A stretch of DNA of 64,000 nucleotides from the NCBI GenBank assembly GCA_018240695.1, contig JAFEFH010000001.1:1-64000 (forward strand), read 5' to 3'. A program made the position numbers and the translations under genes. The notes beneath the pieces are model-generated. The model was not told the origin of the DNA and searched no databases. It saw only the letters and a list, made by a program, of their open reading frames with translations. Position 1 is the first letter of the stretch. The number at the start of each line of letters is the position of its first letter. This DNA comes from Pseudomonadota bacterium. GTDB lineage: Bacteria; Pseudomonadota; Alphaproteobacteria; Reyranellales; Reyranellaceae. This document shows, piece by piece, positions 3-10,930 of the stretch.

Positions 3-1139
3 CTGCAATTCCAGGCGATCTACGAGGGCGAGCGGATGGACGTCGTCGTCCTCACCTTCGTCTACGATCTCATCCGCCTGGTGCCCGTCCTCCAGGCGCA
101 GCGCACCGAGCGCCAGGCCTTCGTGCAATGGGCGCAGAACTTCCTCGCCTTCCAGAGCCGCATCGTGCGCTCGACCCGCATCGGCAACGTGCTGAGCGCG
201 CTGGAAGCGGGCTGGGAAGTGCTGACCCTGGCGCTCTGCTTCGTGGCCGTCGCCTATGTCGGCGTCGGCGCGGCCTTCGCCACCGGTGCGGCGATCGCCT
301 TCGTCGTGGCGCTGGGCAAGCTCAACGCCGCCGGCCTCAAGGCCTCGCACGCGCTGATCGGGCTCGCGAAGCTGATGCCGATGGCCAAGCTCGCGCGCTC
401 CCTGATCGAGCAGACCGTGTCGCCGCAGGCCGGCGGTGCGCCGCTGTCGGAGATCAAGGGCCGGGTGACGCTGAACAACGTGAGCTTCAGCTACGACACG
501 CGGCCCGTCCTGAACGGCGTCAGCGTCGACATCGCGCCGGGCGACTTCGTGGGCATCAGCGGGCCGTCGGGCGGCGGCAAGTCGACCCTGCTGCGCCTGC
601 TGCTCGGCCTCGACGCGCCGCGCGCGGGCGCGGTGCTGATCGACGGGCTCGACCTGCGCGCGCTCGATCAGACCAGCGTGTCGCGCCGCATCGGCGTGGT
701 GATGCAGAACGGCCAGCTCTGGGCCGGCACGATCTTCGACAATATCCGCGGCGCCTCGACGATCTCGCTGGAAGAGGCCGAAGCGCTCTCCGTGCGCGTC
801 GGTCTCGCCGCCGAGCTCGCGCACATGCCGATGGGCCTGCAGACCGTGATCGGCGAAGGCGGGCTCGGCCTGTCGAGCGGCGAGGTGCAGCGCATCCTGA
901 TCGCCCGCGCACTGGCGATGTCGCCCAGCATCCTGATCCTCGACGAGCCGGCCGGCGCCCTGCGCGGCGCCGCGCAGCAGGCCATCCTCGACATGCTGGC
1001 CGGGCTCGACATCACGCGTATCGTCGTCAGCCACGATGTCGACCTCCTGGCCGGCGCCACGCGCCTGTTCGTGCTCGACCGCGGGGCATTGAACGAGGTG
1101 ACGACGTCGGCGACACCGTTCGAGAACGAAAGCCCCTGA
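3..1139 (+). CDS. NHLP/bacteriocin-type ABC exporter, permease-ATPase subunit (5' truncated by window edge)
   Basis: The reading frame is open to the left edge, so only the C-terminal part is present. It begins in the last part of the membrane domain, with a long hydrophobic stretch around bases 215-320, and continues into a complete ABC ATPase domain. That domain has Walker A (GPSGGGKST), a Q-loop (VMQNGQ), an unusual signature LSSGEVQR in place of LSGGQ, Walker B (ILILDEP) and a switch His (VSHD). This pattern fits exporters of the NHLP/peptidase-containing bacteriocin family, which move leader-bearing peptides across the inner membrane. The adaptor gene starts 2 bp after its stop. Whether a C39 leader peptidase sits at the missing N-terminus cannot be seen. 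Confidence 0.88.
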   Translation: MQFQAIYEGERMDVVVLTFVYDLIRLVPVLQAQRTERQAFVQWAQNFLAFQSRIVRSTRIGNVLSALEAGWEVLTLALCFVAVAYVGVGAAFATGAAIAFVVALGKLNAAGLKASHALIGLAKLMPMAKLARSLIEQTVSPQAGGAPLSEIKGRVTLNNVSFSYDTRPVLNGVSVDIAPGDFVGISGPSGGGKSTLLRLLLGLDAPRAGAVLIDGLDLRALDQTSVSRRIGVVMQNGQLWAGTIFDNIRGASTISLEEAEALSVRVGLAAELAHMPMGLQTVIGEGGLGLSSGEVQRILIARALAMSPSILILDEPAGALRGAAQQAILDMLAGLDITRIVVSHDVDLLAGATRLFVLDRGALNEVTTSATPFENESP

Positions 1140-1141
1140 CC

Positions 1142-2431
1142 ATGCTCGACCAGACCCTCTTCAGGCCCGAGGCGCTCGAAAGCCTGCGCAATCCCGAGCA
1201 GGTCGGCCGCGCCCTCCAGCTCGTGCGCGCGCCGTACCGGCTGGTCGTGGTTGCCGTCGCCGTCGTCCTCGCGGCGGGCCTCGCGGCCAGCGCGCTGATC
1301 AAGGTGCCGATCTCGGTCAATGCCAACGGCGTGATCCTGCCGCAGAGCGCCACGCTCGAGAGCACGGTCGCCGCCCAGCACGACGGGCAGATCGCGCGGC
1401 TGAAGGTGAAGGTGGGCGACATGGTCGCCGCCGGCGACGTGATCGCCGAGATGTCCCAGCCGACCCTGGAGCACGACCTCGCGCTCGCCCGTGACGAGGA
1501 GGCCGGGGCGACGCAGCGCCTGCACGACATCCAGCAGCTCCAGAAGCAGAGCACCGCCACGCTGGAGCCGCTGCACGCGTTGCAGGCCAAGGAGGCCGAG
1601 GAGAGCATCCGGCGCCTGACCGTGCGCGAGGCCGACCTGACCAAGCTCACCTCCGACAGCACGGCGCTTCGGGCCAACGGCGTGGTCTCGCTGGACCGCC
1701 TGTTGCAGTTGCGCGGCCAGCTCTCGGAGACGCAGGATGCGATCGCGGCCAAGAAGGCGGCGCTCCTGAACCTGCGGGTCGAATGGGCGGAGAAGGCCAA
1801 TCAATACGCGCGCGAGACCAAGGAACTGGAAGAGAAGGCCGACCAGGCGGATCGCCAGGTGCGGCGCCTCGAGGCCCAGCTTGGCGAGGCCTCGGTCGTG
1901 CGCGCGACGCAGGCCGGCCGGGTGACCGAGATCAAGCTCGTGCCCGGCGACCTGGTGCGCTTCAACAGCGCCGTGATCGGCCTGTTGCCGGAGGCGACCG
2001 ATGGGACCAAGGCCAAGACCCTGATCGCGATCGCGCTGGTGCCGCTGAACGAGGGCAAGAAGGTCGCGCCCGGCATGCAGTCGTACATCGATCCCGCGAG
2101 CGTGCGCCGCGACGTCTACGGCGAGATCCCCGGCAAGGTGGTCGACATCTCCTCGACGCCGGCAACGCCCGAGTTCCTGCGCAACATCCTGCGCAACGAC
2201 GAGCTGGTGCGGAAGGTGACGGAAGGCGGACCGACCTTCCTGGCGACGATCGAGCTGGAGCGCGATCCGTCGACGCCGTCGGGCTATGCCTGGAGCGCGT
2301 CGAAGGGCCCCGAGATGCAGCTCACGGCCGGCACGGCGCTGAGGGCCGAGATCCAGACGGAGCAGGTGAGCCTGCTTGGACTATTGATGCCGGCGCTGCG
2401 CCAATTGTTGCGCGGCGAGCCGGTGCACTGA
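1142..2431 (+). CDS. HlyD-family membrane-fusion protein of the same exporter
   Basis: This 429-aa protein has a single N-terminal membrane helix at about residues 30-50 (VVVAVAVVLAAGLAAS). It is followed by a biotinyl-lipoyl-like beta segment, a long charged alpha-helical hairpin rich in Glu, Lys and Gln (about 120-260), and a second half-motif with the typical GDLVRF strand. That is the HlyD/NHLM adaptor layout. It would bridge the inner-membrane ABC protein to the outer membrane. The start ATG lies 2 bp after the ABC stop codon, so the two are probably co-translated. A much longer open frame extends upstream through the ABC gene, but that extension is Arg/Ala-rich shadow sequence, so I chose the internal ATG. 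Confidence 0.9.
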   Translation: MLDQTLFRPEALESLRNPEQVGRALQLVRAPYRLVVVAVAVVLAAGLAASALIKVPISVNANGVILPQSATLESTVAAQHDGQIARLKVKVGDMVAAGDVIAEMSQPTLEHDLALARDEEAGATQRLHDIQQLQKQSTATLEPLHALQAKEAEESIRRLTVREADLTKLTSDSTALRANGVVSLDRLLQLRGQLSETQDAIAAKKAALLNLRVEWAEKANQYARETKELEEKADQADRQVRRLEAQLGEASVVRATQAGRVTEIKLVPGDLVRFNSAVIGLLPEATDGTKAKTLIAIALVPLNEGKKVAPGMQSYIDPASVRRDVYGEIPGKVVDISSTPATPEFLRNILRNDELVRKVTEGGPTFLATIELERDPSTPSGYAWSASKGPEMQLTAGTALRAEIQTEQVSLLGLLMPALRQLLRGEPVH

Positions 2432-2465: not shown

Positions 2466-5400
2466 ATGTCTGCTTCCAGGAATTCCGACCGCAAGCCGCT
2501 CTCATCCGATGCCCTGCGCAGGGTCATGGGCGGGCAGGGCGACAATAATCGTGACCGCCCGGAGCCCGCGGTCCTGCTCGAGCAGAGCATCGTCGCCTCG
2601 GAAGCGCCTCCGCCGGAGGAGGCCGAACCCGCCGAGCCGGCGGTGATGGCGACCCTCGAGGCCGAGCAAACCGGCCCCGATCCGGCCTGGGTGAGCGAGG
2701 AGATGGCGCGGCTGGGCGTGGACGAGATCGGCGATTTCGAGGCGATCGAGCACGAGGAGCCGGACGTCGCGCCGGAGCAGGACGAGACGAGGATTGCCGA
2801 AGAAGGCCTGGTCGTCGATACCGAGGGAGAGACGATCGACGAGACGCGCCTGCAAGCCGCCGAGGCGGGGCTGGAGCCGCTCGATCCCGTGCCGCCGCCA
2901 GCCGAGGCGCCGACGGACGATCCCGAGGCCTTGACTGCCGAGGCGCCGGACGAGCCCGCGCCGCGGCAGGACGCGGCGCCGCCGGAGCCGGTGCGCGAAG
3001 TGGCCGAAGCGCCGATCTCGATGCAGGACGAAGTGCCGGCCCTGCCGGCCACGCCGGCGCCGGTCGATTTCGATCCGGCCCTCGCCGTGGTCGCCGCCAA
3101 GATGGCGGCGGCGAAGGCCAAGCCCGCGCCGGTGGTGATCGCGCCGGAAGCCGAGCCGCTGGTCTACATGACGCAGAGCCGGATGAATTTCGATACGCCG
3201 CATGGGCGCGCGATCCTGGCCAAGGCCTTCGCCGATCCCTTCGCGCGGATCGTCAATGCGCAGCGCTACATCCTCAACCATCCCGACCTCGACGCGGCAC
3301 GCGCATCCGAGAGGAGCTTCATCCAGGCCAAGGCACAGTACGAGGCCTCGCTGAAGGAGCACGAGGGCCAGAGGAAGGCCGGCGTCCGGGACATGTCGGC
3401 CTTCAAGGCCAAGGTGGAGCGCGCCGAGGAAGCGCTCATGAAGGCGGGGCGGGATTTCAGCGGCCGTCTCGTGCCGGCCAAGTACGTGCCGTACGAGCGG
3501 ATGGCCGTGGCCGATCCGTGGGAGCGCGAGCGAACCGCGCGCGCCGACCTCGTGAAGGCAATCAAGACCGGCACGGCGGCCGACGTGCAGAAGGCGCAGG
3601 ACAAGCTCAACGCGGCCAAGCTGCCGCCGGATGCCGCGGGCAAGTTGAAGCTGTTCGACGGCCAGAAGAAGACGATCGAACGCAAGATCATGGCGACCAT
3701 GATGAAGATCCAGGGCGTCGAGGATCGCGTGAAGTCGATCACGCCGATGAAGGAGCGGGCCGACAACAATGCCGCCAAGAACATCGCCAAGCAGGGCAGC
3801 TCGATCGAGCGCCAGGGCGACAAGATGGCGTCGCTGACCTATCACGCCAACAAGTTCCTGTCGCCGCAGATGGCGTCGTTCCTCGACAACAAGCAGTTCG
3901 CCGCGCGCGGCGACATGGAGCTCCGCATGGCCGCCCACTACAAGGGCGAGCTCCTGAAGGACCTGCACAAGCTCAACCTCGATCTCGCGCGCGTCGAGAC
4001 CTTCCGCGAGGTTGCCCAGCAGTCCAAGCCGGTGCTGGTGACCGATCTCGGCGACGCAAACGCCAAGGTCGATGCCGCCCACAAGGAATGGAATGCCCGC
4101 ACCGGCGAGGTCGGGACGGCGATCAAGGCCAGCAACGGCGCCACTGAGGCGACCAAGACGGCGACGGCGGAGGCAGGCAAGACGCTGAAGACGCTGCACG
4201 AGAAGATGGCGGCGATGCGCGCGGCCGATCCGACGACCAACATGGCGGTCCAGGCGATGGAAAGGGCCCAGAAGATGGAAGGCGGCCTGCTGGGCTTGCC
4301 GGGTGGTCTGCCGGGCATATCTCTCTTTGTCGGCCTGCCCTACATACCGGGTCTGCTGCCGATGATGCCGTCGACGACGCCGGGCGTCTCGCTGAAGCAT
4401 GTGGCGGACGCGCAGGCGAACTTCGACCAGAAGATGAAAGTGCGCGGCGAGAAGGAAGCGGCTCTCAAGGCCGGATACGAGGCCGTCGGCGAGAAAGCGG
4501 GCTGGGGCGCCAATATCAAGAACGACAACGACAACAGTGCCGAGGGCCGTTTCAGGGCCTACGCCGCGACGACCAAGGACGCGGCCAGGCAGGTGAAGGA
4601 GTTCGCCAAGGCCAACACCGAGGCCGTCGAGGCCTACCGCGCGCTCGCCAGCCTCAAGGCCAAGTTGCCGGAGCATGTGCGCGCCGTGAACATGCTGGGC
4701 AAGCAGATCGATCTCGTCCAGCTGGGCGCGCCGCTGGCGCTCAAGGCGGCCGAGGCGGAGTACGCCAGGACCGGCGCGGCGGCCAAGCAGGTGGACGCGC
4801 TGAAGCCCAAGCTGCAGCAGGACGCGCGGATCGCCGATGCCGCGCGCGACCATGCCAAGCAGCAACTCGACATCACGGCGCGAACCCTGTTCAAGGCCTA
4901 TGTCGACAAGGCGCCGGGCCTGCGCATCGAGTTCCTGAACTACACGATGAACGACCAGTACACGAAGTGGTACGCCGCCTCGAAGGCGGCGGCGAAGGTC
5001 CATGCCGATATCGCGGCGCTGCCCGATCATCCCGCCCACAAGGCGCATGCGGAGGCCGGCGAGATTCTCAAGAACGCGCGGGACTGGGCGGTCAAGTCGG
5101 TCGAATTCGCCCGGCTCGACAGCGAGCCGGTCAAGCAGGCCAAGCAGAAGGCCGCCGCCGAGGTCGCGAAGGCATGGGAGGCCCACCAGGCGTCGCTCGA
5201 GAGCGTGAAAGCGAAGATGAAGGCGGAGTTGGATGCCGCCAACGCCGTCGGCCAGGCCGCGGCGAACGCGCAGGGCGCGCTTCAGAAGATCGACGAGGCG
5301 GTCGACGCGAAGAACGCGCTCGAGATCCGCATCCTCTCCGGCGAGGTGTCGGTGAAGAACGGCGCGCAGGCGGACTTCGACGCCCGGCTCGCTGCGGCAA

Positions 5401-7094
5401 AGAGCAAGGCGGAGGCGGCCGACAAGACCGCGATGGACGCCCGTGAGACCTATCTGAAGGCGACACAGGGACCGGTGAAAGTCGACCGGTTCAAGGAGCT
5501 GGATCTCGCCCGGCACACCAGCAAGGCCTATCAGGAGGCGCGGGCGGCGAAGGCCGAGTACGAAACGTTGCGGACCAGCGGCAAGGCCATCGTCGAGGCG
5601 CAGAACAAGGCGCTGGCGGAACTTTTCGCCGGCGTGGCGCTGACGCCGGGGACTGCCGCGGCGAAGGCAGGGGTGCCGGGTGCTGTGGAGGCTCCTGCCA
5701 AGACCACGATGCCCGCTGCCGCCGAGGGGCCGCCCAAGGCGACGCCGGACGCGAAGGCGTTGCCCGATGCGAAGGCCGAGGCCAAGGCCGCGCTCGAGGC
5801 GCTGCGCAGCGGCCACAAGCTCACCGGCGGCGGCAAGGCCACGGTGACCGGCGAGATCAAGAAGGAGACGGGCTCGCCCACCAAGGTCACGCCGTGGGGC
5901 ACCGTCTACCAGCAGGCGGCGCTGGCCGCGGCCAAGGAGGGCAAGGCCGCGCCGACCAAGGCCGAGGTCGACACCAAAACGCAGAAGAAGGCGCTGGAAT
6001 CGCTGAAGGAGTCGGTGACGTCCAAGTCGCACGAGCTGGTGGGCGCGCTGGGCCGCGACATCGGCCAGGACATCGCCCGCGAACTCGCGGTCAAGGCCGG
6101 CACCAACTACAAGGTCGGCAAGGACATGATGCTGGCCGGCGAGATCTTCCGGACCACCGTCTTCAACGGCACCACGAAGATCACCGCGCTTGCCCAGGTG
6201 TCGATGAAGACCGGCGCCGAGGCCTACTACAGCAACCTCGGTGCGCACGGATCGGCCGGTTTCGGACTCAAGTTCGATACCGGTGCGACGATCGACAGCA
6301 AGGCGCCGCTGGGCGGCGGCGCGTCGACGATCCTCGGCGGCAAGGCCTATCTCGGCGGCGGCGTCGATCTCTCGGCCAAGGGTGGGGCCAACATCCTGGG
6401 CGCCTCGGCCGATCTCGTGGCCAAGGCGCATGCCAACGGGGAGGTGAGCGGCATGGCGGGCTTTGCCTTCGGCGAGCATGTCGAGCTGTCGCAAGGCGGC
6501 CAGGCCAATGCCGATGCCGAGGCGCAGGCCAGCGCCGGCGCCAAGCTCGGCGCCGACGGCGGCAGCATCAAGCTCAGCGCCTCGGCCGACGCCTCGGTGC
6601 GCGCGGCCTTCCTGCAGAAGGCCAAGCTCGGCATGCTGAACTATACCGGCACGATGGAGGCCTGGGCCAAGGCGCGCGCCGAGGCGGTGGCCAGCGTCTC
6701 GGCCGGCATGGTGAGCGGCGAGTTCAAGCTCGGCGCCAAGCTCGGCGCGTCGGCCGGCGCCGGTGCCGGCCTCCAGGAGACCAAGAAGATCAATATCTCC
6801 GGCGTCGAGTTCGAGGCGACGCTGGGTGTTCATGCCGGCACGCTGGGCGCGTCCGCGGGCGTCGACGTGGGCTACAAGAACGGCGTGCTGAGATGGAGCG
6901 TCGATGTCGGCGCGGCCTTGGGCGTCGGCATCAACTTCAAGATCGGCGGCTCGATCGACTTCGTCGAGGCGGCGAAGGGCGCGGTGAAATTCTTCGCCGA
7001 TATCGCGCGGCTGTTCGATGCCCGTCTGGCGCACCAGATGGAAGTCTCGGCATGGAAAGACATGGCGCGCCGCGGCGTCGCCATTTTCAATTGA
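2466..7094 (+). CDS. Giant exported protein with double-glycine leader (bacteriocin-exporter substrate)
   Basis: This is a 1542-aa protein. The N-terminus carries L12, L17, V20, G22 and G23, which is the L-12, L-7, V-4, G-2, G-1 spacing of a class II bacteriocin leader, with predicted cleavage after G23. An acidic Pro/Ala/Glu-rich segment follows (about 30-220), then a long Ala/Lys-rich region predicted to be helical or coiled coil (about 230-1090). A short hydrophobic Gly/Pro/Leu insert lies near 615-640. The C-terminal third (about 1230-1520) is Gly/Ala/Ser-rich with alternating hydrophobics and looks like repetitive beta structure. It lies 34 bp after the HlyD gene, which suggests it is the exported substrate. 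I do not recognise a catalytic domain. It could be a toxin, an adhesin or a surface structure. Confidence 0.75.
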   Translation: MSASRNSDRKPLSSDALRRVMGGQGDNNRDRPEPAVLLEQSIVASEAPPPEEAEPAEPAVMATLEAEQTGPDPAWVSEEMARLGVDEIGDFEAIEHEEPDVAPEQDETRIAEEGLVVDTEGETIDETRLQAAEAGLEPLDPVPPPAEAPTDDPEALTAEAPDEPAPRQDAAPPEPVREVAEAPISMQDEVPALPATPAPVDFDPALAVVAAKMAAAKAKPAPVVIAPEAEPLVYMTQSRMNFDTPHGRAILAKAFADPFARIVNAQRYILNHPDLDAARASERSFIQAKAQYEASLKEHEGQRKAGVRDMSAFKAKVERAEEALMKAGRDFSGRLVPAKYVPYERMAVADPWERERTARADLVKAIKTGTAADVQKAQDKLNAAKLPPDAAGKLKLFDGQKKTIERKIMATMMKIQGVEDRVKSITPMKERADNNAAKNIAKQGSSIERQGDKMASLTYHANKFLSPQMASFLDNKQFAARGDMELRMAAHYKGELLKDLHKLNLDLARVETFREVAQQSKPVLVTDLGDANAKVDAAHKEWNARTGEVGTAIKASNGATEATKTATAEAGKTLKTLHEKMAAMRAADPTTNMAVQAMERAQKMEGGLLGLPGGLPGISLFVGLPYIPGLLPMMPSTTPGVSLKHVADAQANFDQKMKVRGEKEAALKAGYEAVGEKAGWGANIKNDNDNSAEGRFRAYAATTKDAARQVKEFAKANTEAVEAYRALASLKAKLPEHVRAVNMLGKQIDLVQLGAPLALKAAEAEYARTGAAAKQVDALKPKLQQDARIADAARDHAKQQLDITARTLFKAYVDKAPGLRIEFLNYTMNDQYTKWYAASKAAAKVHADIAALPDHPAHKAHAEAGEILKNARDWAVKSVEFARLDSEPVKQAKQKAAAEVAKAWEAHQASLESVKAKMKAELDAANAVGQAAANAQGALQKIDEAVDAKNALEIRILSGEVSVKNGAQADFDARLAAAKSKAEAADKTAMDARETYLKATQGPVKVDRFKELDLARHTSKAYQEARAAKAEYETLRTSGKAIVEAQNKALAELFAGVALTPGTAAAKAGVPGAVEAPAKTTMPAAAEGPPKATPDAKALPDAKAEAKAALEALRSGHKLTGGGKATVTGEIKKETGSPTKVTPWGTVYQQAALAAAKEGKAAPTKAEVDTKTQKKALESLKESVTSKSHELVGALGRDIGQDIARELAVKAGTNYKVGKDMMLAGEIFRTTVFNGTTKITALAQVSMKTGAEAYYSNLGAHGSAGFGLKFDTGATIDSKAPLGGGASTILGGKAYLGGGVDLSAKGGANILGASADLVAKAHANGEVSGMAGFAFGEHVELSQGGQANADAEAQASAGAKLGADGGSIKLSASADASVRAAFLQKAKLGMLNYTGTMEAWAKARAEAVASVSAGMVSGEFKLGAKLGASAGAGAGLQETKKINISGVEFEATLGVHAGTLGASAGVDVGYKNGVLRWSVDVGAALGVGINFKIGGSIDFVEAAKGAVKFFADIARLFDARLAHQMEVSAWKDMARRGVAIFN

Positions 7095-7102
7095 GGTCGG
7101 TC

Positions 7103-7612
7103 ATGGACGAGAAGGTCGAAGCCCTCCGCAAGAAGCTGGAAACCGAGCTGCCGCCGGTGCTGGCGGAACTCGCCATCGTGGCGCGCGGCACCGTGCAGCG
7201 CATCGCCGAATCCGACGGTTGGTCGGTCGAGCAGAGCCAGTGGATCGCCGAGAAGGCGCTGCCGCCGATCGTCGAGGATCTCGCGGCGGCGATGTCGCCG
7301 GAAGACGCCCTGGCCGACGGCTACAAGAAGGCACTCCAGGCCATGGCGCTGTCGATCTTCGAGGACGCACTGGCCGAAGGGAAGACGCGCGACGTGGCCT
7401 TCCTGATGCTGGTCGAGCTCGAGAAGCAGCTCGCGCTGCATCGCGGCGAGGCGCCGGCGGCCTATTCCGACGCCCTGCTGATGGCCGGCTGCGAGGCCGT
7501 CGAGGCGGCGGCGCAGGAAGGCGGCTCGAACGCCGACCAGATCGAGACCGGCTTCGCCATGATGCGCGAACTGGTGCGGGACTACGGCACCGGCACGGGC
7601 CCCGACGCCTGA
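7103..7612 (+). CDS. Small acidic helical protein, possible partner or immunity protein
   Basis: The protein is 169 aa, acidic and almost entirely helix-forming, with no signal peptide or membrane segment. It starts 8 bp after the giant leader-bearing protein and ends the exporter operon. I do not recognise a family. Its position directly after the presumed exported protein is where an immunity protein, chaperone or secretion accessory would be expected, but that is inference from position only. The start ATG at 7103 is preceded by a GAGG-like Shine-Dalgarno sequence. The same frame is open far upstream through the large gene, but that part is shadow sequence. Confidence 0.65.
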   Translation: MDEKVEALRKKLETELPPVLAELAIVARGTVQRIAESDGWSVEQSQWIAEKALPPIVEDLAAAMSPEDALADGYKKALQAMALSIFEDALAEGKTRDVAFLMLVELEKQLALHRGEAPAAYSDALLMAGCEAVEAAAQEGGSNADQIETGFAMMRELVRDYGTGTGPDA

Positions 7613-7616
7613 ACCG

Positions 7617-9245
7617 TCAGGCGGCCTTCGCGGCCGCCAGCACCATCTCGGCGCACTTCTCGCCGATCATGATGCAGGGCGCGTTGGTGTTGCCGCTGGT
7701 CAAGGTCGGCATGATCGAGGCGTCGGCGACGCGCAGGCCTGCGATTCCGTGCACGCGCAGCTGCGGGTCGACCACGGCCGTGCTGTCCGATCCCATCTTG
7801 CAGGTGCCGACGGGGTGATAGGTCGTCTCGGCGGTGGTGCGCACCCACTCGAGGATGTCCTCGTCGCTCTGCTTGTCGATGCCGGGCGCGATCTCCTCGC
7901 CGGTCATTTCCTTGAGCGGCGAGGTCGCCATCAGCTCGCGGCCCTTGCGGATCGCGGCCAGCACGCCGTCGCGATCGGCCTTGGCCGACAGGAAGTTGAA
8001 GCGGATCGCCGGCGCCTCGGCGGCGTCGGCCGACTTGATGTGGATCGAGCCCGTGCTCTCGGAGCGCAGCACGTTCACGTTCATGGTGATGCCGCGGCGC
8101 TTCGAGATGCGCCGCTCGTGGCCGACGCGCTCGTAGAGGAACGGCAGGACCGAGATCGTCGCGTCCGGCGTCTCCAGGCCGGGCCGGGTGCGGAAATACA
8201 TGCGGATCGGCACCGCGGTCGAGGCGAGGAAGCCCTCGCCCAGCAGCGCGTACTTGATCGCCTCGCGGGCGAGCCGCCAGCTGCGCGCATTGTCGTTGAA
8301 GGTGGCGTTGCGCGCGGTGATCGCGAACTTCACCCGCGGCGAATAGTGGTCGCGCAGGTTCTCGCCGACGCCCTTCAGCTCGTGCACCGGCGTCACGCCG
8401 CGCGCCCGCAGCAGCTCGGCCTGGCCGATGCCGGACAGTTCCAGCAGCTTGGGCGAGTTGATCGAGCCCGACGACACGATCACTTCGCGCGTCGCGCGGG
8501 CCTCGCGCTTCTCGCCGCCGACGGCGTAGCGCACGCCGACGCAGCGCTTGCCGTCGAGGATCAGCCGTTCGGCCAGGGCGCCGCGCTCGATCGTGAGGTT
8601 GGCGCGGCCGCGCGCCGGATCGAGATAGCAGAAGGCCGTGCTCTGGCGGCGTCCCTTGGCGATCGTCACCTGGGACATGCCGATGCCTTCCTGCGTGCGG
8701 CCGTTGAGGTCGGTGTTGAAGGGTAGGCCGATCTTGGCCGCGGCCTCGATCATGTTCTCGAGCAGCGGTACCTTGTGGCGCGGCGTGTCGGTGATCTTGA
8801 GCGGCCCGTCGCGGCCGCGCAGCTCGTCCGAGCCGCCGGCATAGTTCTCCATGCGCTTGAACACCGGTAGCACGTCCTGCCAGCTCCAGCCGCGATTGCC
8901 GAGCTGCGCCCAGTGGTCGTAGTCCTGCGCCTGGCCGCGGATATAGACCATGCCGTTGATCGAGCTGGAGCCGCCCAGCATCTTGCCGCGCGGCACCTCG
9001 ATGCGGCGACCGCCGGAGCCTTCGTCGGGCTCGGACGTGAAGCACCAGTTGACCGCCGGATGCTCGATCATCTTCGACACCCCGACCGGGATGCGCGACC
9101 AGAGATAGTCCGATCCGGCCGTGCCAGCCTCGAGCAGCAGCACGCGATGGGCGCCGCTCTCGGACAGCCGGCTGGCCGCCGTCGCGCCCGACGAGCCGGC
9201 GCCGATCACGATGAAGTCGAACTGGTCGGAAAAAGGGGTCGGCAT
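7617..9245 (-). CDS. GMC-family FAD-dependent oxidoreductase (choline/alcohol dehydrogenase type)
   Basis: At 542 aa this is the usual GMC length. The N-terminus has the dinucleotide-binding motif GAGSSG inside FDFIVIGAGSSGATA. The GMC signature region GSSSINGMVYIRG follows near residue 85. The C-terminus has the HPVGTCKMG motif carrying the catalytic His. Members oxidise alcohols such as choline or other hydroxylated substrates with FAD; the substrate cannot be read from sequence. The gene is convergent with the exporter operon, with a 4-bp gap, and appears to be ordinary chromosomal content lying outside the integrated element. Confidence 0.93.
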   Translation of the reverse strand: MPTPFSDQFDFIVIGAGSSGATAASRLSESGAHRVLLLEAGTAGSDYLWSRIPVGVSKMIEHPAVNWCFTSEPDEGSGGRRIEVPRGKMLGGSSSINGMVYIRGQAQDYDHWAQLGNRGWSWQDVLPVFKRMENYAGGSDELRGRDGPLKITDTPRHKVPLLENMIEAAAKIGLPFNTDLNGRTQEGIGMSQVTIAKGRRQSTAFCYLDPARGRANLTIERGALAERLILDGKRCVGVRYAVGGEKREARATREVIVSSGSINSPKLLELSGIGQAELLRARGVTPVHELKGVGENLRDHYSPRVKFAITARNATFNDNARSWRLAREAIKYALLGEGFLASTAVPIRMYFRTRPGLETPDATISVLPFLYERVGHERRISKRRGITMNVNVLRSESTGSIHIKSADAAEAPAIRFNFLSAKADRDGVLAAIRKGRELMATSPLKEMTGEEIAPGIDKQSDEDILEWVRTTAETTYHPVGTCKMGSDSTAVVDPQLRVHGIAGLRVADASIMPTLTSGNTNAPCIMIGEKCAEMVLAAAKAA

Positions 9246-9358: not shown

Positions 9359-9535
9359 GGCCTTTGTAGGTTAGCCTACTTGTATCCGGCAGCACGCATT
9401 CCTTCGCTAAGCGCTTGGGGTAAATGGACTTTGTGCCCATTGCGTTCGACCGTGCGTAGCCGGAACTACGAAGCGGCTCGCTTTCTGGTGGCTCCTAGTC
9501 GGCCCCTGGAAAGTGGCAAGGATGGAGCATCCGGA

Positions 9536-10930
9536 ATGGCCAAGATCAAACTCACGAAGAGCGTAGTCGACGCAGCCACTTTCTGCGCAAAGGAGTACGA
9601 ACTGCGCGACACCGTCGTGCCTGGGTTTCTTCTGAAGGTAACCCCCGCTGGCCGAAAAGTCTTCATGATCCAGTATCGGACCAATGCCGGAGAGCGCAGG
9701 AAGCCCGCAATCGGCCGGTTCGGTGAGCTTACAGTCGAGCAAGCACGTTCGATTGCCCAAGATTGGCTTGCGGACGTGCGCAAAGGCAAGGATCCAAGCG
9801 CCGAGAAAACTGCTGCCAGAGACGCTCCGAGTGTGAAGGAACTCTGCCCGAAATTCATAGAAGACTACTCGAAGCCAAAGAATCGGCCGAAAACTGTTGA
9901 GAGCAACCAAGGCTATATCGACCGCCACATAATTCCCAGTCTTGGGACCCTCAAGGTTCGTGAAGTCACCCGGTCAGATGTCTCGAGCCTCGTTACCCGA
10001 ATGAAGAAAATTCCGGTGACCGCCAATCGCGTTCTGTCCTGTCTGCGCAAGATGTTCAACATGGCTGAGGTCTGGGGCTTCCGCGACGACGGCACCAATC
10101 CGTGTCGCCACATCCCGAAGTACCCCGAGAACGGCAAGACGAAGCTGATCGCCGACGAGGAGATGTTTCGACTGTTTAGCTATCTAGAACGCGCAGATGT
10201 GGAGGGCTTGGAGCACCCGTTCCTCACTCTCGCGATCCGCCTGCAATTCGCCTTTGCGGCGCGAATGTCGGAGATCATCAGCATGGAATGGGGCTGGGTT
10301 GACTTTACAAATCGTCGTGTTGTCTGGCCGGACAGCAAGACCGGCGAAATCTCGAAGCCCATGAGCGAGGATGTCGTCGCGCTTCTTACGAACGCACCGC
10401 GCCTGGAAGGTTCGCCCTACGTCGTGCCCTCCATCTTCAAAGCGGACCGACCGATGTCCGCGATCACTTACTCTAGAGGCTGGAAGCGCGTCCTCGAGCG
10501 AGCGGAGATCCCACATGTGGGGACGCACGGAATCCGGCACCGTGCCACTACTGAGATTGCGAATTCCGGCGTTCCGCTAAAAGTCGGAATGCAACTCACG
10601 GCGCACAAGACGGTCACGCAGTTCATGCGATACGTCCATATTGAGGACGACCCGGTTCGGGCCGCTGCCGAGACTGTCTCGTCGCGCAGGCTCGTCTTAC
10701 TTGCCGGCCAGCGAACTAGTACACAACCTGCTCACAACCTGATGGTGGTACAGCCCGCCAAGCTGTTGAGAGTGCCAGTTGCCACGCCCGCAGGCTTCGG
10801 CGACGGACAGTACAGCTCCAAGACAAAGCTCGGAAATTACCGCCCCTTCCGACATCGGTCGGGAGCAAATCGTGCAGCTCCGCCCGGAACAAAACGCACC
10901 AGGAAAGCTCGATTGGTTGCCGCGGAATAG
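9536..10930 (+). CDS. int: Tyrosine-type site-specific integrase
   Basis: This 464-aa protein has an N-terminal DUF4102-like arm-binding domain (GFLLKVTPAGRK, then IGRFGELTVEQAR), a SAM-like core-binding domain and a C-terminal catalytic domain. The visible catalytic residues are Arg in AARMSEI, His/Arg in HGIRHR, His in TAHK and the nucleophile Tyr in MRYVH. The P4/ICE integrase family integrates into the 3' ends of tRNA genes, and this gene sits about 180 bp from a truncated tRNA-Leu. The ATG at 9536 was chosen because the DUF4102-like domain begins there. The frame stays open upstream to 9380, but that part reads through the att region. The C-terminal 50 residues are a low-complexity basic tail. 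Confidence 0.93.
   Translation: MAKIKLTKSVVDAATFCAKEYELRDTVVPGFLLKVTPAGRKVFMIQYRTNAGERRKPAIGRFGELTVEQARSIAQDWLADVRKGKDPSAEKTAARDAPSVKELCPKFIEDYSKPKNRPKTVESNQGYIDRHIIPSLGTLKVREVTRSDVSSLVTRMKKIPVTANRVLSCLRKMFNMAEVWGFRDDGTNPCRHIPKYPENGKTKLIADEEMFRLFSYLERADVEGLEHPFLTLAIRLQFAFAARMSEIISMEWGWVDFTNRRVVWPDSKTGEISKPMSEDVVALLTNAPRLEGSPYVVPSIFKADRPMSAITYSRGWKRVLERAEIPHVGTHGIRHRATTEIANSGVPLKVGMQLTAHKTVTQFMRYVHIEDDPVRAAAETVSSRRLVLLAGQRTSTQPAHNLMVVQPAKLLRVPVATPAGFGDGQYSSKTKLGNYRPFRHRSGANRAAPPGTKRTRKARLVAAE

What the first reader, a model, noticed from the sequence alone, without database searches (positions are those of the whole stretch)
2466..7094. A 1542-residue protein with a class II bacteriocin leader
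The N-terminus fits the double-glycine leader exactly (L-12, L-7, V-4, G-2, G-1), and the gene follows an NHLP-type ABC and HlyD pair. Substrates of such exporters are usually peptides under 150 aa. A giant substrate with a helical body and a Gly-rich beta-like C-terminus suggests a secreted toxin, a surface fibre or a contact-dependent effector of a type not clearly described.
Basis: partly seen in the sequence, partly recalled or inferred. Interest (0 to 1): 0.8.

Follow-up and report, generated by a model that had tools for sequence, protein, structure and literature searches.

The report
Giant exoprotein with a bacteriocin-type leader
A very large bacterial protein carries the short export tag normally found on small antibiotic peptides, and related species show that it belongs to a rare, undescribed cassette of leader-cleaving exporter, large modular substrate and small acidic partner protein, whose final job (surface structure or weapon) is still unproven.

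Summary
Window 2466-7094 encodes a 1542-aa, cysteine-free protein with a strict double-glycine leader (LSSDALRRVMGG|Q), 34 nt after an NHLM-type HlyD. It is not an isolated oddity. A sister-species homologue (CAIKZO010000077.1) keeps only two parts well: the leader (57% identity) and a C-terminal Gly/Ala-rich, strongly beta-periodic domain (66%); most of the rest is 21-28%. The window's ABC belongs to a rare subclass of peptidase-less NHLM ABC2. In three other species of the genus this subclass sits beside an ABC1 with an intact C39 peptidase and a large protein with the same beta-type domain. A fourth locus lies in another family. The substrates span 382-1542 aa. In five of six loci the next gene is a new family of small, acidic, all-helical proteins (window 7103-7612). 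The window's own C39 gene cannot be seen because base 1 is a contig end. Most likely this is a leader-cleaving type I secretion system adapted to large modular exoproteins, with the acidic protein as dedicated chaperone. Toxin versus surface fibre is undecided: the C-terminal AlphaFold model failed and no domain matches anything known. It is a new variant of a known kind.

The parts
3..1139 (+). NHLM-type ABC exporter, ABC2 subclass (permease end and ATPase); 5' part lost at the contig end
   Evidence: TIGR03797 E 3e-91; 48-50% identical to full-length ABC2 of G043, G013, G041; subclass profile 274 bits for the 150-residue fragment
1142..2431 (+). HlyD-type membrane fusion protein of NHLM systems
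   Evidence: TIGR03794 E 3e-68, over cut-off
2466..7094 (+). 1542-aa large exported protein, 162 kDa, no cysteine
   Evidence: ORF; no Pfam, NCBIfam, PHROGs, PADLOC or PDB sequence match; 0 Cys
2466..2534 (+). double-glycine leader, predicted cleavage after Gly23
   Evidence: strict motif, shuffle frequency 9.5e-5; residues 9-45 are 57% identical in homologue L090 against 21-28% in the body
2535..3185 (+). acidic Pro/Ala/Glu-rich, probably disordered linker (residues 24-240, pI 4.05)
   Evidence: composition and charge
3186..5645 (+). basic Ala/Lys-rich body (residues 241-1060, pI 9.5), probably helical, fast-evolving (21-26% identity)
6336..6980 (+). conserved Gly/Ala-rich beta-periodic domain (residues 1291-1505)
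   Evidence: 66% identity to L090, beta periodicity z 9.6; profile match to the G043 substrate, 93.6% probability, E 2e-7, reversed control E 0.055
7103..7612 (+). 169-aa acidic (pI 4.35), all-helical partner protein, proposed export chaperone
   Evidence: family found directly after the large protein in 5 of 6 loci; AF2 mean pLDDT 84.5, 7 helices

Best explanation
The gene encodes a large modular exoprotein of a two-ABC, leader-cleaving type I secretion system. Proposed steps: (1) the leader is recognised by the C39 peptidase of a partner ABC1, which is present in the relatives and lost at the contig edge here (inferred from relatives); (2) it is cut after Gly23 (inferred); (3) the unfolded, cysteine-free chain passes through ABC1/ABC2, HlyD and an unlinked TolC-like pore (inferred); (4) the acidic helical protein encoded just downstream keeps the chain, probably its beta-periodic domain, unfolded in the cytosol (inferred from position, acidity and co-conservation); (5) outside, the Gly/Ala-rich beta domain folds and either anchors the protein at the surface or drives self-assembly, while the fast-evolving remainder makes the contact with neighbours or surfaces (speculative). 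Shown by the sequences: the leader, the exporter subclass, the adjacency and the conserved partner.
For: Leader and beta domain are the only strongly conserved parts against the homologue. The ABC2 subclass is sharply separated in the family-wide search: 579-609 bits for three full-length members and 274 for the window fragment, against at most 121 for the rest. Beside the full-length members stand an ABC1 with PF03412 (E < 1e-30, catalytic Q/C/H/D retained) and a large protein with the beta-type domain, leader-bearing wherever its N-terminus is present (G043, G041; G013's is cut off). An unbiased scan of 303 genes for Gly/Ala/Ser-rich beta-periodic segments ranks exactly these substrates on top, next to all five subclass exporters (window included) and to none of the ordinary NHLM loci. 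The acidic partner family directly follows the large protein in the window, G008, G041, G013 and G438. There is no cysteine in either full-length homologue. No RTX nonapeptides or known domains were found.
Against: No C39 peptidase is present in the window's own assembly. In G008 the giant and partner are not beside an exporter, and the ABC2 subclass was not detected in that 90%-complete genome. The leader of the G043 substrate is weak (VRDEDAARMAGG). The G043 giant has no partner gene directly downstream. No structure of the beta domain could be obtained (mean pLDDT 33). The giant itself has a homologue in only one other genome of the 75 searched.
Confidence: 0.68

Rival explanations
1. It is a contact-dependent antibacterial weapon, working like a scaled-up Cdz bacteriocin: exported, retained on the surface through the Gly-rich domain and toxic to neighbours, with the acidic downstream protein as immunity factor.
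For: Double-glycine-like leaders and Gly-rich sequences next to a C39-type exporter; patchy distribution; fast-evolving body; the G043 substrate carries a different, unrelated C-terminal region of about 470 aa after the beta domain, as polymorphic toxins do; Cdz shows that surface-held, type I-exported Gly-rich proteins can kill in Alphaproteobacteria (PMC5380434).
Against: No toxin domain was found; the partner is predicted soluble whereas CdzI has three transmembrane segments; the partner is better conserved (62%) than the giant (34%) and also accompanies a 382-aa substrate that shares only the leader and a beta-type domain, which fits a chaperone better than an immunity protein; only short GxxxGxxxG runs, with charged residues in between.
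Confidence: 0.3
2. It is a surface adhesin or fibre used for attachment, aggregation or matrix building, like the giant T1SS adhesins but exported by an N-terminal cleaved leader.
For: Size, long extended-looking acidic linker and Ala/Lys helical body, beta-periodic Gly-rich end suited to self-assembly or outer-membrane retention, no enzymatic domain.
Against: No adhesion domains or tandem Ig-like repeats by Pfam; amyloid or adhesive behaviour untested.
Confidence: 0.35
3. The leader-like N-terminus is a chance match and the protein is cytosolic or exported otherwise, merely adjacent to the exporter.
For: No C39 in the assembly; in G008 the gene lies next to prophage-type genes rather than an exporter.
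Against: Shuffle frequency about 1e-4, leader conservation in the homologue, and the same architecture at four other exporter loci.
Confidence: 0.07

Closest known systems
NHLM/NHLP two-ABC peptide exporters (TIGR03794, TIGR03796, TIGR03797; PMC2887384)
   Same: HlyD over the curated cut-off; best ABC family is NHLM ABC2; relatives have the C39 ABC1 next to ABC2 and HlyD
   Different: The cargo is a 382-1542-aa protein, not a nitrile-hydratase- or Nif11-type peptide precursor; no modification enzymes recognised beside it; the ABC proteins score below the curated equivalog cut-offs; a new acidic partner gene is present
Class II microcins / double-glycine bacteriocins (colicin V type)
   Same: Leader pattern L-12, L-7, V-4, G-2, G-1 and dependence on a C39 ABC exporter (inferred)
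   Different: More than ten times larger than usual substrates; no immunity membrane protein seen; mature part is modular
Cdz contact-dependent bacteriocin of Caulobacter (CdzABCDI, PMC5380434)
   Same: Alphaproteobacterial type I export of Gly-rich proteins with an N-terminal signal
   Different: CdzC and CdzD are 86 and 84 aa with hydrophobic glycine zippers; the giant has alternating small/charged residues, and its partner is predicted soluble and acidic, not a 3-TM immunity protein
RTX and LapA-type T1SS exoproteins
   Same: Large, Cys-poor, Gly-rich C-terminal part, HlyD-type export
   Different: No RTX nonapeptides (0 found); N-terminal cleaved-type leader instead of an uncleaved C-terminal signal

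Membership tests
NHLM exporter | HlyD of TIGR03794 | tested here: met
   230.7 bits against cut-off 156.2
NHLM exporter | ABC2 of TIGR03797 over the curated cut-off | tested here: not met
   Window fragment 306.8 bits (truncated); full-length relatives 377-507 bits against cut-off 709.4, although TIGR03797 is the best family
NHLM exporter | ABC1 with C39 peptidase (TIGR03796) | tested here: inconclusive
   Absent from the window's assembly, which stops inside ABC2; present with intact catalytic residues in three relatives, 555-705 bits against cut-off 853.3
NHLM exporter | NHLP or Nif11 precursor peptide as cargo | tested here: not met
   No NHLP, Nif11 or other over-cut-off match in Pfam or NCBIfam for the giant or the other large substrates
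Double-glycine leader substrate | Leader with hydrophobic -12, -7, -4 and GG/GA/GS at the cleavage site | tested here: met
   LSSDALRRVMGG; conserved in L090
Double-glycine leader substrate | Cleavage after GG and export | not testable with these tools
   Needs N-terminal sequencing or mass spectrometry
Cdz glycine-zipper bacteriocin | Short protein with extended hydrophobic GxxxG zippers | tested here: not met
   1542 aa; GxxxGxxxG runs are short and charged residues interrupt them
Cdz glycine-zipper bacteriocin | Multi-TM immunity protein | tested here: not met
   Partner is acidic, mildly hydrophilic (GRAVY -0.08) and all-helical in the model; no dedicated TM predictor was run
RTX exoprotein | GGxGxDxUx nonapeptide repeats | tested here: not met
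   0 in all seven large or leader proteins
T1SS adhesin (LapA/Bap type) | Tandem Ig-like or VCBS repeats | tested here: not met
   No Pfam domain at E <= 1

The most novel reading that the evidence does not exclude
A distinct, undescribed secretion module: a two-ABC leader-cleaving type I system specialised for very large modular proteins, in which a Gly/Ala beta-periodic domain takes the place of the RTX domain (unfolded inside, folding outside) and a dedicated acidic chaperone family is co-encoded, with interchangeable cargo regions used in cell-cell contact.
Probability: 0.35. Interest if true: 0.8.

Novelty: new variant of a known kind. Interest (0 to 1): 0.62.

Why it matters
Peptidase-containing ABC exporters are usually discussed as peptide exporters. 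If cleavage and export of a 162-kDa chain is shown, the size limit and mechanism of these transporters (how a long chain is threaded while the leader is held by the C39 domain) become directly testable. The conserved two-gene cassette also gives a search key for an unrecognised class of large exoproteins in environmental Alphaproteobacteria, and a new small protein family with a testable chaperone role.

Tried and rejected
C-terminal AlphaFold model with a two-row alignment: mean pLDDT 33, not used. PDB fold search with the partner model: no match at E <= 0.001. Giant in plasmids, phages and viral contigs: none; other substrates in plasmids: none; exporter permease in plasmids: none; partner in viral contigs: none. 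Genome-contig scan with the single protein found nothing; with the two-row alignment it found only the known homologue. Weak partner-family hits in G133, G425, G143, G747, G625, G725 (E 1e-4 to 1e-6) were not accepted: those inspected (G133, G425, G143) are low-complexity or unrelated loci, though G133 and G425 lie next to a T1SS. A beta-periodicity hit in L059 (2-3874) is a long ORF running off the locus edge with no similarity to the exporter set; it scored below all the substrates. Considered and rejected: NHLP/TOMM precursor, RTX protein, Cdz member.

Full report
Observation. The 4629-nt ORF at 2466-7094 exists as described. The leader LSSDALRRVMGG is the only strict double-glycine match among 49 called genes of the window and appears in about 1 in 10,000 shuffles of its own N-terminus. 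It follows HlyD (1142-2431, TIGR03794 over cut-off) and an ABC fragment (3-1139, best TIGR03797) within one apparent transcription unit.

The missing peptidase. TIGR03797 is by definition the peptidase-less NHLM ABC (PMC2887384). The peptidase is expected in ABC1. The window's assembly has no PF03412 match, but window base 1 is a contig end that cuts ABC2, and no other contig was found to carry the missing ABC2 N-terminal part. So the absence is an assembly gap as far as can be told, and it does not refute the idea.

Relatives supply the missing parts. A profile of the ABC2 permease finds only four clear members in 75 genomes of the family, with a wide gap: 579-609 bits for the three full-length ones and 274 for the window fragment, against at most 121 for the others. 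In G043 the gene order is HlyD, 1076-aa protein (leader-like N-terminus), ABC1 with C39, ABC2. In G013 it is a large protein cut at a contig end (N-terminus not seen), the partner, ABC1 with C39, ABC2, HlyD. In G041 it is a 183-aa leader protein, a 787-aa leader protein, the partner, ABC1 with C39, ABC2, HlyD. All three ABC1 proteins retain the Q, C, H and D of the C39 active site. Outside the family, G438 has ABC1 (cut), ABC2, a 382-aa GG-leader protein and the partner. The subclass is rare: one clear member outside the family among 385 genomes sampled across the class.

What is conserved in the cargo. The only homologue of the giant itself, in a MAG labelled Enhydrobacter aerosaccus (CAIKZO010000077.1, L090/L004), shares the leader region (57%) and residues 1291-1505 (66%); all other long segments are 21-28% identical, apart from 40% just before the beta domain. 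Residues 1280-1510 are 19% Gly and 20% Ala, and residues 1291-1505 show a strong two-residue hydrophobic periodicity (z = 9.6). The same kind of domain aligns with the other substrates better than reversed controls, most clearly for G043 (93.6% probability, E 2e-7) and G013 (80%, E 1.4e-5), weakly for G041 and hardly at all for G438. A scan of 303 genes from all fetched neighbourhoods for Gly/Ala/Ser-rich, beta-periodic segments puts exactly these substrates at the top. They stand beside every subclass exporter and beside none of the ordinary NHLM loci of the same genus. The window protein and its homologue contain no cysteine and no RTX repeats.

A new partner. The gene at 7103-7612 encodes a 169-aa acidic protein (pI 4.35). 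Members with pI 4.35-4.56 stand directly behind the large protein in five of six loci. AlphaFold gives a seven-helix model with mean pLDDT 84.5 that matches nothing convincingly in the PDB, and no family library searched knows it. It is more conserved than the body of the giant and also accompanies a cargo of only 382 aa that shares just the leader and a beta-type domain. This points to a role in handling the conserved parts, that is, an export chaperone rather than an immunity protein. That is inference.

Mechanism. The published model for C39 exporters is that the leader docks on the peptidase and the chain is threaded, cut at the double glycine and exported (PMC8277102). Applied here, a 162-kDa chain would be handled the same way, kept unfolded by the partner, and its beta domain would fold outside. 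Cleavage, export, the TolC-like partner, chaperone function and biological role are not shown. Two roles fit: a surface fibre or adhesin, and a contact-dependent weapon. G043's substrate has a different long C-terminal region after the beta domain, which recalls modular toxins, but that region has no known domain.

Mobility. In the window a tyrosine integrase lies 2-3 kb downstream. In G008 the giant-partner pair sits beside a prophage-type terminase and replication-initiation gene and away from any exporter of the subclass. Together with the patchy distribution (2 of 75 genomes for the giant) this suggests horizontal spread of the cassette.

Verdict. It is a new variant of the NHLM/C39 type I secretion kind, with large modular cargo and a new accessory family. 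The function of the cargo remains open.

Noticed in passing
L072 4500-5702 (-); L084 17452-18516 (+): A FGE-sulfatase-domain protein, with a PEGA domain above cut-off in L072, is encoded next to HlyD in two of the related exporter loci (G013, G041); its link to the system is unknown.
   Followed up: partly
window 9533-10930 (+): Tyrosine integrase (Arm-DNA-bind_3 plus Phage_integrase) about 2 kb downstream of the cassette, past a GMC oxidoreductase at 7617-9245 (-).
   Followed up: partly
L090 427-2574: Prophage-type replication-initiation and terminase-large genes directly upstream of the homologous giant in G008.
   Followed up: partly
L084 8021-8572: A 183-aa second leader protein upstream of the 787-aa substrate in G041, 41% identical to its N-terminal part; possibly a truncated paralogue.
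   Followed up: no
L112 8079-8840; L113 7355-8029: Acidic Pro/Asp-rich proteins with A..G.SP.EA repeats resembling the turns of the partner family, just upstream of a type I secretion ABC pair in another alphaproteobacterial family.
   Followed up: no
window 4281-4373 (residues 606-636): A hydrophobic Gly/Pro-rich stretch (GGLLGLPGGLPGISLFVGLPYIPGLLPMM), the most hydrophobic part of the giant, largely missing from the homologue L090.
   Followed up: no
L066 1602-4119: Two tandem NHLM-type HlyD genes and a truncated C39-type ABC in G008, which might export its orphan giant in trans.
   Followed up: no
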